Under the pieces are notes generated by a model. It made no database searches and was not told where the DNA came from. It saw nothing but the letters and a program-made list of their open reading frames with translations. From a bacterium (GTDB lineage: Bacteria > Pseudomonadota > Gammaproteobacteria > Burkholderiales > Burkholderiaceae_C), in NCBI GenBank assembly GCA_030824555.1, contig JAVBXK010000028.1, positions 43,463-107,462 on the forward strand: a stretch of 64,000 bases of DNA. The letters are read 5' to 3'. Both the position numbers and the translations under genes were made by a program. Each line of letters opens with the position of its first letter. Position 1 is the first letter of the stretch. Positions 57,873-61,199 of this stretch are shown here, in pieces.

Positions 57873-60800
57873 TCAGCGTCCCCAGCCGTATGCGTAGGCG
57901 GTCATGTAGGTGTAACAGACGCTCGCATCGTCAGCCAGTTCGAGAAAGCTGAATTGGCGACGCTGCCAGGGCGCGAAATCGTGTTCGCTCATTTCCTGGG
58001 TCAGGTCGTGCAGCACCATGCCCCGGTCGGCAAAAAAACGGTGGCGCGCAGGGCCTTCCATGACCACGCGCACATCACGGTGGCGCGTGTCGGCCTTGAT
58101 GTGGTCCATCAAGGCAAGCAGGGTGTCCCGCTGGCCTTCGAGCATTTGCATGAAAAAGCCGTCCCGGTACACCAGGCAGCCCGAAATGTCGTTCGAGCGA
58201 TTGAATGACTGGGCCAGCTTTTGCAGCGGGCCCAGGTCTTCGCCCGAGAGTGAATGCGTGGCCTGGCTGACGTAGATCAGGCAATACAGCGGGTAGGCCG
58301 CGCTGGGGGTGGCTGCTTGCAACTCGCGAGCAAACGTGTCGACAAACGTCGATGCCGTGAGTGGCCGATGGAAGTAATAGCCCTGGATCAGATCGCAACC
58401 ATAGGCACACAACTCGTGTCGCTGCGCGCCCGTTTCAACACCTTCTGCCACCAGCTTCATCCCCAGCGAGCGTCCCAGACCGATGACAGCCCGGATGATG
58501 TTGCGGCTTTCTTCACTCTTGTCGATACCGTCGACAAAGGCGCGGTCGATCTTCAGCACATTGACCGGCATGCGTGTCAACTGCGCCAGCGACGAATACC
58601 CGGTGCCGAAATCATCCACCGCCACGCGCAGGCCCAGGTCAGCCAGGCGACGCAGGATGCGCAGATTGGCTTCGACATCGGCCATCAGCGAGGTCTCGGT
58701 GATTTCCAGCAGCAGGCGCGTCGGGTCGGCCCCCGTCTCGCGCAAGGTGGCTGCAAAATCGTCCACCAGTGTCTCGTTGCTCAACTGTCGCACGGAGACA
58801 TTGACCGAGACATACGGTGCCTGCTCACCCCACCGGTTGCGCCAGTCGGCCTCGGCCAGACAAGCCTGGTGGAAGACCCAAGCCCCGATGGGCACGATGG
58901 CACCGGTGAGTTCGGCAATGGGTATGAACACCGCTGGCGAGACCTCACCCGTCGGCGGGTGCCAGCGCAGCAGCAATTCGGCTCCCACGATGCGGCCGCT
59001 CTCGGCGGCCACAATGGGCTGGAAGCGCGGCGACAGTTCGTTGCGCTCAATGGCCGTGCGCAGGCCGTTGGTGATGTGCAGCCGCTGACGGGCCACGTCT
59101 TGCAGGCTCTCGCTGAAAAACTGCCAACCGTCACGCCCTTTTTTCTTCACCGCATACATCGCCGCGTCGGCAAAACGAAGCAGATCATCGGCACCGTGGG
59201 TGGTGCCACTGCCGATGGCCACACCGATGCTGGCGGTGACAAACAGTGACAGGCCGTTGAAATGGACAGGCTTGCGCAAGGTGTCGTTGATCCGCTCGGC
59301 CAGCACCGACATCGACGTGGGCTGTTCCACCTGCTCGCACAAAATGACAAATTCGTCACCGGCCAGGCGCGCCACCGTGTCGCCGGGCCGCACCTGCTCG
59401 ATCAGGTGGGCCGCGACCGACTTCAGCAGCACGTCGCCGGTTTCGTGACCGTGGGTGTCGTTGATGAGCTTGAAACCATCGAGATCGACAAACAGCAGAG
59501 CCACGTTCAAACCGCTGCGGCGCGAACGCAGCAAGGCAGTGGCCAGCCGCTCACGGATCAGCGCCCGGTTGGGCAGGCCGGTGAGCGGGTCGTGTGTGGC
59601 ACGTCGCGTCAGTTCTTCCTCGGCCTTTTTGCGCTCGGTGATGTCGCGGATGGTGACGACCAGCAGCCAGTCTTTGCCTTGCCTGACCTTGGCGATGGAG
59701 CCCTCCATCGGGAAAAAACTGCCATCTTTGCGGTAACCCATCAACTCTTTGCGCTCGGACATCCGGCGCTCGGTTTCCTTGCCCTCGACAAAATCACGCA
59801 ACTGCTCGACATGCCGCTGGCGGAAATGGGGGGGCAGCAGCAGGTGTACCGACAGGCCGATCATTTCCTCCTCTTTGTAACCAAACACCTGGCTGGCACG
59901 TTGGTTGGATTCGGTGATGAGGCCTTCGGCATCGGTGGCCAGGATCGCCATGTCGGCGATGGAAAATATTTGGTGGGCGGTGCCGAGTTTGCGTCGCGCT
60001 GCGGACGCTTCTGCCGCCAACCGGGCCGTGACGGCGGGTGTCTGCGGGGATTCGTGCAGCAGCGCGACCTGTGCCTGGTCTCGGTAGCGTTCCGGTATCA
60101 ACGGCGCCATGCGACCAAAGCTTTCGATGACCGTGAAGGTGCCATCGGCCTTGCAGCGCGCAAGGTAGCCATTGATGTGCGCGTGGTGGGTGGCGCCGTC
60201 CATCTCAACGATGCCCTGTGCCCCGGTGACGCGCACTTTTTCCAGCGCATCGACCAGCGCCTCCACGTCGGTCGTTCCCGCTGCTTCCAGCGCGTTCGCG
60301 AAGGCATGCACACACAGGTAGGTGCCTTCCCCGAAGTTGGTCAGCACACCATTCCCGTGCGGCCAGATGCCGTTGATGCCGGGCTGGTCCCGCAGGCGCC
60401 GCAGGTAGCGGTGGTTTTCCGGGGTGTCGAGCGACATGAAATAGCTGTTGCTCGAATAAAAGCCCTCGCGAACATGAGGCGGCAACAGGCTGACCATCAT
60501 TTCGTCGTAATGCCCCATCACCACGGCCATGCGCTTTTTCAGCCCGAGCTCGGTGAAGCGGGTCAGCAAAGCGATCTGGTCTGTGCCAGCAAAATAAGGC
60601 ACGAACACGTCGGCACCCGAGCGAGCGACCTGGGCCAGCAGCTGGTCGATGGCGTCGCTGTCGCAACCGATGGGCAGGTATTCCTCGCCAACGATGTCAC
60701 CGTCAAGGCGCAGCAAGGCGCGCTTGGCAGCATCGATCGAGCCGCGTGGCCATTCGTAGTTGTTGCCAGCAAAAAACATTTTGAGGCCGTAGCGCTGCGC

Positions 60801-61199
60801 CATGTACGGCATCATTTTGTCGATCTGCTGGTTGGGCAGTGCGGCAAAACTGAAAAAGTAACGCCCGCTGATGCTGCCTTCGTAGAACGAGAAATTGAGC
60901 AAGGGAATCTGTTTCGGCTGTGCGACCTTGGTCGCCACGGCGATGCGCGAGTTGGACAGCAGGTTGCCGATGATGGCGATGCAGCCGTGATCGTCGACCA
61001 GGCGTTCGGCCGCAGGCACAGCGGTGTCGGGCAAGCTGCCGTCGTCCTCGATCACCAGTTCAAGCCGTCGGCCCAGCAGGCCGCCGCGTTCGTTGATTTC
61101 GTCGCAGGCAATCCGAGCTGCCCAGACAATTTCTCGGCCATAAATTTCAACGAGTCCTGTGAGGGGGGGCATCAAGCCAAGGCGAATTGAATCAGGCAT
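57873..61199 (-). CDS. Cytoplasmic UrtA/AmiC-like sensor - PAS - GGDEF - EAL - BLUF multidomain protein
   Basis: N-term DEINERGGLLGRRLELVIEDDGS...FAALPNQQ parallels UrtA; PAS; LAGDEFVIL; AELLLRWHPP; DDFGTGYSSL; AEGVET; C-term YPLYCLIYVSQATHS...FNRSNDISGCLVYRDGFFMQMLEG...DTRHRDV = BLUF. Confidence 0.9.
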   Translation of the reverse strand: MPDSIRLGLMPPLTGLVEIYGREIVWAARIACDEINERGGLLGRRLELVIEDDGSLPDTAVPAAERLVDDHGCIAIIGNLLSNSRIAVATKVAQPKQIPLLNFSFYEGSISGRYFFSFAALPNQQIDKMMPYMAQRYGLKMFFAGNNYEWPRGSIDAAKRALLRLDGDIVGEEYLPIGCDSDAIDQLLAQVARSGADVFVPYFAGTDQIALLTRFTELGLKKRMAVVMGHYDEMMVSLLPPHVREGFYSSNSYFMSLDTPENHRYLRRLRDQPGINGIWPHGNGVLTNFGEGTYLCVHAFANALEAAGTTDVEALVDALEKVRVTGAQGIVEMDGATHHAHINGYLARCKADGTFTVIESFGRMAPLIPERYRDQAQVALLHESPQTPAVTARLAAEASAARRKLGTAHQIFSIADMAILATDAEGLITESNQRASQVFGYKEEEMIGLSVHLLLPPHFRQRHVEQLRDFVEGKETERRMSERKELMGYRKDGSFFPMEGSIAKVRQGKDWLLVVTIRDITERKKAEEELTRRATHDPLTGLPNRALIRERLATALLRSRRSGLNVALLFVDLDGFKLINDTHGHETGDVLLKSVAAHLIEQVRPGDTVARLAGDEFVILCEQVEQPTSMSVLAERINDTLRKPVHFNGLSLFVTASIGVAIGSGTTHGADDLLRFADAAMYAVKKKGRDGWQFFSESLQDVARQRLHITNGLRTAIERNELSPRFQPIVAAESGRIVGAELLLRWHPPTGEVSPAVFIPIAELTGAIVPIGAWVFHQACLAEADWRNRWGEQAPYVSVNVSVRQLSNETLVDDFAATLRETGADPTRLLLEITETSLMADVEANLRILRRLADLGLRVAVDDFGTGYSSLAQLTRMPVNVLKIDRAFVDGIDKSEESRNIIRAVIGLGRSLGMKLVAEGVETGAQRHELCAYGCDLIQGYYFHRPLTASTFVDTFARELQAATPSAAYPLYCLIYVSQATHSLSGEDLGPLQKLAQSFNRSNDISGCLVYRDGFFMQMLEGQRDTLLALMDHIKADTRHRDVRVVMEGPARHRFFADRGMVLHDLTQEMSEHDFAPWQRRQFSFLELADDASVCYTYMTAYAYGWGR

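What the first reader, a model, noticed from the sequence alone, without database searches (positions are those of the whole stretch)
57873..61199. Soluble UrtA/AmiC-like ligand sensor fused to PAS-GGDEF-EAL and a C-terminal BLUF photosensor
Seen: the 1108-aa protein begins MPDSIRLGLMPPLTGLVEIYGREIVWAARIACDEINERGGLLGRRLE, with an in-frame TAA two codons upstream, no signal peptide and no obvious TM. This N-terminus parallels the UrtA encoded in the same window (DEIN-KGGLLGKKLE; AAPNQQ vs ALPNQQ). The C-terminal 140 aa keep the three canonical BLUF flavin-site residues: Tyr in LIYVS, Asn in FNRSNDISG, Gln in FMQMLEG, plus DTRHRDV. GGDEF is AGDEF and EAL is ELL, but DDFGTGYSS, KID and AEGVET are intact, so phosphodiesterase activity is plausible. 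Known BLUF-EAL proteins (YcgF/BluF, BlrP1) lack a solute-binding sensor, and AmiC is a cytoplasmic amide sensor. The inference is one enzyme integrating blue light and a small ligand (amide/urea/amino acid) to set c-di-GMP. I do not recall this architecture being characterised.
Basis: partly seen in the sequence, partly recalled or inferred. Interest (0 to 1): 0.92.

Follow-up and report, generated by a model that had tools for sequence, protein, structure and literature searches.

The report
Soluble ligand-and-light c-di-GMP enzyme
This gene makes a soluble bacterial enzyme that probably makes and breaks the signalling molecule c-di-GMP under the joint control of an unidentified small molecule and blue light; it belongs to a widespread but apparently unstudied family, and this particular copy has lost a tryptophan that its relatives' light sensors keep.

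Summary
ORF 57873-61199 (-), 1108 aa, has Peripla_BP_6, PAS, GGDEF, EAL and BLUF domains in that order, with no signal peptide or TM. It is not a one-off: 115 of the 120 best database hits carry all five domains, and 45 of 82 SBP-bearing loci examined do too. Another 19 lack BLUF and 11 have a histidine-kinase output. The N-terminal module folds like AmiC/UrtA (TM 0.9), but UrtA's urea residues W120, Y141, Q144, N246 are replaced, by residues fixed across the family whatever the output, so urea is unlikely and the ligand is unknown. All EAL catalytic residues are intact and AGDEF with an RxxD I-site is a proven active cyclase type, so bifunctional c-di-GMP turnover is likely. Light control is likely for the family but doubtful for this copy. 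RmcA already joins a flytrap ligand domain and a flavin/light domain to GGDEF-EAL, so the principle is not new; the soluble type-I SBP plus C-terminal BLUF wiring is.

The parts
57873..61199 (-). whole gene, 1108 aa, SBP-PAS-GGDEF-EAL-BLUF
   Evidence: ORF, Pfam, full-length homologs
60084..61190 (-). N-terminal type-I solute-binding (Venus-flytrap) domain, residues 4-372, cytoplasmic
   Evidence: Pfam Peripla_BP_6/5; AF2 pLDDT 94, Foldseek TM 0.90-0.91 to UrtA and AmiC
59958..60038 (-). predicted linking helix 388-414 between SBP and PAS
   Evidence: AF2 secondary structure; low local confidence
59634..59948 (-). PAS domain, residues 418-522
   Evidence: Pfam PAS_9
59130..59600 (-). GGDEF domain, residues 534-690
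   Evidence: Pfam
59379..59390 (-). RxxD inhibitory site (604-607)
   Evidence: sequence; 121/121 conserved
59349..59363 (-). AGDEF active-site motif (613-617)
   Evidence: sequence; A in 113/121
58362..59063 (-). EAL phosphodiesterase domain, residues 713-946
   Evidence: Pfam; catalytic residues invariant or nearly so
58971..58979 (-). ELL variant of the EAL motif (741-743), metal-binding Glu kept
   Evidence: sequence; E 121/121, L 98/121
58599..58616 (-). DDFGTG metal/dimer loop (862-867)
   Evidence: sequence; 121/121
58017..58289 (-). BLUF domain, residues 971-1061
   Evidence: Pfam; Tyr976, Asn1000, Gln1018 kept
58023..58025 (-). codon 1059 = CGG (Arg) where all other BLUF-bearing members compared have Trp (AppA W104 position)
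57876..58016 (-). BLUF C-terminal cap helices, residues 1062-1108
   Evidence: AF2 secondary structure; part-conserved columns

Best explanation
It is a soluble, probably dimeric, bifunctional c-di-GMP enzyme with two sensory inputs. A cytoplasmic Venus-flytrap domain of the AmiC/UrtA fold closes on one specific but unidentified small molecule, and the change is passed through a linking helix to the PAS domain and on to GGDEF-EAL. The BLUF domain, on a short linker after the EAL barrel, binds flavin and in most family members lets blue light tune the EAL dimer and so c-di-GMP hydrolysis, much as BlrP1 does from the other end. Shown here: architecture, cytoplasmic topology (from sequence), conservation of catalytic and flavin residues, one conserved ligand pocket across three output types. 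Inferred: ligand binding, dimerisation, direction of both effects, net activity. In this copy Trp1059 is Arg, so its light response is probably weakened or altered; that too is inferred.
For: Domains. Same architecture in 115 of 120 best hits and 45 of 82 SBP loci. SBP fold. Soluble: upstream stop codon and hydropathy. Pocket positions 79, 80, 82, 102-105, 107, 147-150, 230, 232, 233 identical in BLUF, EAL-only and HK members and in 10 loci found without the search motifs. EAL metal/catalytic residues E741, N800, E832, D862, D863, K883, D885, E919, Q939 invariant or nearly so. RxxD and D572/N580/D581/E616 kept. BLUF Tyr/Asn/Gln in all members but for one Tyr-to-Phe. BLUF divergence follows the rest of the protein (Spearman 0.65-0.76, 0/500 permutations), so it evolved with the enzyme. 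Helices predicted at the SBP-PAS, PAS-GGDEF, GGDEF-EAL and EAL-BLUF joints.
Against: No biochemistry. BLUF is absent from 19 of 64 complete GGDEF-EAL members, so the enzyme can work without it. Trp1059 is Arg in this copy. Domain arrangement is not resolved by the model (pTM 0.43). The EAL-BLUF linker is poorly conserved (32% identity).
Confidence: 0.6

Rival explanations
1. In this organism the BLUF domain is light-blind or strongly altered (Trp1059Arg) and the enzyme is mainly a ligand/PAS-controlled c-di-GMP enzyme; the flavin, if bound, is structural or a redox sensor.
For: Arg at 1059 against Trp in all other BLUF members compared; [quoted passage not shown] BLUF is dispensable in relatives.
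Against: The rest of this BLUF domain is as conserved as in its neighbours (71% against 71-76% mean identity); Tyr, Asn, Gln and Met are intact; W104 mutants of the isolated AppA BLUF domain still photocycle; a single-base assembly error cannot be excluded.
Confidence: 0.35
2. It is a urea (or small aliphatic amide) sensor.
For: Closest folds are UrtA and AmiC; Ser82, Glu107, Tyr148 of the UrtA pocket are kept; the same window encodes UrtA.
Against: UrtA W120, Y141, Q144, N246 are replaced by residues fixed in the family, while the window's own UrtA keeps all four. The gene sits beside unrelated genes, 55 kb from urtA.
Confidence: 0.1
3. The GGDEF domain is catalytically silent and only gates the EAL phosphodiesterase by binding GTP; the protein is a pure PDE.
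For: Common in GGDEF-EAL proteins; AGDEF is non-canonical, and S variants occur in some relatives; RmcA acts mainly as a PDE in vivo (PMC8846402).
Against: AGDEF with RxxD is active in VCA0965 (PMC3974145); GTP and metal residues and the I-site are almost invariant.
Confidence: 0.35

Closest known systems
RmcA (PA0575), Pseudomonas aeruginosa
   Same: Venus-flytrap ligand domain, PAS, GGDEF-EAL, ligand (L-Arg) plus flavin/light and redox inputs; GGDEF-EAL 43% identical (5m3c; that PA0575 is RmcA is own knowledge)
   Different: RmcA's flytrap is SBP_bac_3 and periplasmic, signalling through the membrane; its light input is a LOV-like PAS, not BLUF; four PAS domains (PMC8846402)
BlrP1 (Klebsiella) and YcgF/BluF (E. 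coli)
   Same: BLUF coupled to EAL
   Different: BLUF is N-terminal to EAL, no GGDEF, PAS or solute-binding domain
BldP of Allochromatium vinosum and Magnetococcus marinus
   Same: blue-light-activated BLUF phosphodiesterases listed in PMC8846402; Allochromatium species also carry this family (L065, L086)
   Different: their domain layout could not be read here (source paper not held), so kinship is untested
AmiC (amide sensor, P. aeruginosa)
   Same: cytoplasmic type-I SBP used as a sensor; TM 0.91
   Different: AmiC is a separate protein that sequesters AmiR; pocket residues differ; 24% identity
UrtA (urea-binding protein)
   Same: nearest sequence relatives of the SBP domain, TM 0.90
   Different: UrtA is exported and feeds a transporter; urea residues not kept here
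BLUF-GGDEF/EAL protein of Methylomicrobium alcaliphilum listed in PMC4844311
   Same: possibly a member of this family: Methylotuvimicrobium buryatense has the full architecture (L052)
   Different: the solute-binding domain is not mentioned in the passage read; identity untested

Membership tests
BLUF photoreceptor domain | Pfam BLUF match over its cut-off | tested here: met
   83.5 bits against cut-off 25
BLUF photoreceptor domain | Tyr, Asn, Gln flavin triad | tested here: met
   Y976, N1000, Q1018
BLUF photoreceptor domain | signal-relay Trp (AppA W104) and Met (M106) | tested here: not met
   Met1061 kept but Trp is Arg1059 in this copy; Trp in all other BLUF members compared. Some BLUF domains elsewhere also lack this Trp (own knowledge), so it is not strictly defining of the fold
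BLUF photoreceptor domain | flavin binding and about 10 nm red shift | not testable with these tools
   needs purified protein
EAL phosphodiesterase | metal and catalytic residues | tested here: met
   E741, N800, E832, D862, D863, K883, D885, E919, Q939 (roles from PMC5301497 and own knowledge of RocR)
GGDEF diguanylate cyclase | (G/A)G(D/E)EF motif, GTP/metal residues, RxxD | tested here: met
   AGDEF, D572, N580, D581, R604xxD607; activity not tested
UrtA urea-binding protein | urea pocket residues | tested here: not met
   W120 to L, Q144 to F or S, N246 to A, Y141 to N or L
UrtA urea-binding protein | signal peptide for export | tested here: not met
   stop codon two codons upstream; N-terminal hydropathy 0.87
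AmiC-type cytoplasmic amide sensor | type-I SBP fold, cytoplasmic | tested here: met
   TM 0.91 to 1pea; no export signal
AmiC-type cytoplasmic amide sensor | amide binding and AmiR partner | tested here: inconclusive
   neighbours are AsmA and a rubrerythrin-like gene, no AmiR next to it; binding untested
RmcA-type membrane flytrap GGDEF-EAL | periplasmic flytrap and transmembrane helix | tested here: not met
   no TM-like stretch outside the EAL core helix

The most novel reading that the evidence does not exclude
A family of soluble c-di-GMP enzymes, found in several phyla, uses a flytrap domain with a new, strictly conserved ligand specificity to read an intracellular metabolite, and gates that response with blue light through a C-terminal BLUF domain; the same metabolite sensor also drives histidine kinases, and the window's copy is a natural light-altered variant.
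Probability: 0.4. Interest if true: 0.72.

Novelty: new variant of a known kind. Interest (0 to 1): 0.52.

Why it matters
A 2022 review (PMC8846402) notes that flytrap-clan domains are common in c-di-GMP proteins yet only one (RmcA's) has been studied, and that BLUF is rare beside GGDEF/EAL. This family has both in one soluble protein, so two-input control can be measured in a single tube without a membrane. Its ligand pocket is identical across cyclase/phosphodiesterase and kinase outputs, so finding one ligand would annotate many sensors. Natural relatives with and without BLUF, and a natural Trp-to-Arg variant, are ready-made controls, and EAL-BLUF in this order could serve as an optogenetic part.

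Tried and rejected
Urea as ligand: rejected on pocket residues. Conserved gene neighbours as a clue to the ligand: clustering of 80 loci with up to 10-kb flanks found no partner in more than 7 loci; an 841-aa membrane-type protein adjoins the gene in a few of them. Pseudodomain decay of this BLUF: rejected, since its divergence matches its neighbours apart from two positions, D1004 and R1059. Single late fusion: not supported; the BLUF label needs 14 changes on the SBP tree, and BLUF occurs on both sides of the midpoint root, so early gain with several losses, repeated gain or transfer are all open. Full-length AF2 did not fix the domain arrangement (pTM 0.43). Literature searches for BLUF with Peripla_BP, and Peripla_BP_6 with GGDEF, returned nothing; that library holds open-licence papers only. 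The BldP source paper was not held. The search of protein representatives was not used.

Full report
Observation. The minus-strand ORF 57873-61199 encodes 1108 aa from an ATG with an in-frame TAA two codons upstream. Pfam gives Peripla_BP_6 (4-353), PAS_9 (418-522), GGDEF (534-690), EAL (713-946) and BLUF (971-1061), all well above cut-offs. There is no signal peptide (highest 19-residue hydropathy in the first 60 residues 0.87), and the only strong hydrophobic stretch in the whole protein, near residue 757, lies inside the EAL domain. Because of the upstream stop no longer N-terminus exists, so the solute-binding domain is very probably cytoplasmic.

It is a family. Of the 120 best database hits, aligned over the whole length, 115 hold all five domains and 5 lack BLUF. 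A scan of GTDB genomes with motifs from the SBP domain gave 80 named loci from Betaproteobacteria, Gammaproteobacteria, magnetotactic and other Alphaproteobacteria, Desulfobacterota, Nitrospirota, Myxococcota, Spirochaetota, Campylobacterota and others. Among 82 SBP-bearing loci (these 80, the window's gene and L004), 45 are SBP-PAS-GGDEF-EAL-BLUF, 19 are the same without BLUF, 11 have a histidine-kinase output and 7 are fragments. Cultured owners of the BLUF form include Simplicispira psychrophila, Azoarcus sp. L1K30, Parazoarcus communis, Methylotuvimicrobium buryatense, Methylomonas lenta, Allochromatium and Ectothiorhodospira. In the window's class 11 of 387 genomes have a close SBP match. 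Of the BLUF hits listed for 243 class genomes, the window's is the only one in a frame over 500 aa; most are short BLUF proteins.

The SBP domain. Modelled alone with 52 sequences it is confident (pLDDT 94, pTM 0.92), and its best structural matches are UrtA (TM 0.90) and AmiC (TM 0.91), ahead of amino-acid binding proteins. Using the P. marinus UrtA-urea structure (PMC10392092), the urea residues map as W120 to L80, S122 to S82, Y141 to N102, Q144 to F105, E146 to E107, Y190 to Y148, F192 to W150 and N246 to A204. A second aligner shifts Y141 and Q144 by one residue, but neither Tyr nor Gln is kept in either version. The UrtA encoded in the same window keeps W, S, Y, Q, E, Y and N, a control that the mapping works. 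The replacing residues are fixed in BLUF, EAL-only and kinase members alike and in ten loci found by profile search rather than by motif (the motif scan itself selects for some of these columns, hence this control). So the family most likely has one ligand specificity, and it is not UrtA's.

Catalysis. All EAL metal and catalytic residues are kept. The ELL variant keeps the metal-binding Glu; the middle residue varies in the family. AGDEF with an RxxD inhibitory site is a proven active cyclase form in VCA0965 (PMC3974145). Both activities are therefore plausible; which dominates is unknown. The nearest solved GGDEF-EAL is PA0575/RmcA (5m3c).

BLUF. Tyr976, Asn1000 and Gln1018 are kept in this protein and throughout the family, apart from one Phe. 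The window's copy differs from the family at two otherwise near-fixed positions, Asp1004 (Gly in 114/117) and Arg1059 (Trp in 114/114 of database homologs and 44/44 of BLUF-bearing loci). Residue 1059 matches AppA W104 by motif alignment (F-x-x-W-x-M); W104A abolishes blue-light sensitivity of full-length AppA in vivo (PMC7005313). The codon is CGG, one transition from TGG. The domain as a whole is not decaying. BLUF distances follow those of the rest of the protein.

Mechanism. By analogy with BlrP1, where BLUF acts on the EAL dimer interface (PMC3989770), and with PAS-GGDEF-EAL enzymes, the likely scheme is ligand closure of the flytrap, relay through the 388-414 helix and PAS to the GGDEF-EAL tandem, and a separate light input from the C-terminal side onto EAL. 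The relay steps are inference.

Known or new. RmcA already joins a flytrap ligand sensor and a flavin light/redox sensor to GGDEF-EAL (PMC8846402), so the principle of joint ligand and light input is known. A soluble type-I flytrap plus BLUF behind EAL is a different wiring for which no study was found in the open-licence library. A 2014 census lists one BLUF-GGDEF/EAL protein in Methylomicrobium alcaliphilum (PMC4844311) that may be a member, without mention of the binding domain in the passages read. Verdict: real, well conserved, a new variant of a known kind; the urea idea should be dropped, and light tests should start with a Trp-bearing relative.

Noticed in passing
L005 (genome G007, same genus), about 1504-3944, minus strand: A broken ortholog: SBP residues roughly 35-315 are missing and there is an in-frame TGA near codon 790, while its BLUF keeps the Trp.
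   Followed up: partly
L062, L063, L068, L072, L076, L078, L079, L083, L084, L085, L092: The same cytoplasmic SBP module fused to PAS/GAF histidine kinases, some hybrid; these form one supported clade on the SBP tree.
   Followed up: partly
L001 731-1923 (genome contig C10): The genome's second BLUF gene is a short BLUF protein directly after a GTP cyclohydrolase I-like ORF (the FolE-like name is from reading the sequence, not a scan).
   Followed up: no
L056, L060, L089: In magnetotactic or related Alphaproteobacteria a response-regulator-type gene starts about 3 bp after the SBP-PAS-GGDEF-EAL-BLUF gene.
   Followed up: no
P0156, P0157, P0158: PAS-GGDEF-EAL-BLUF proteins of 777-816 aa without the SBP domain, suggesting that the C-terminal BLUF also occurs with GGDEF-EAL alone.
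   Followed up: no
window 57447-57815 (+): Small rubrerythrin-like ferritin-family protein beside the gene.
   Followed up: no
window 56734-57228 (+): ORF with collagen-like GATG/GPAG repeats after a lipoprotein-like start.
   Followed up: no
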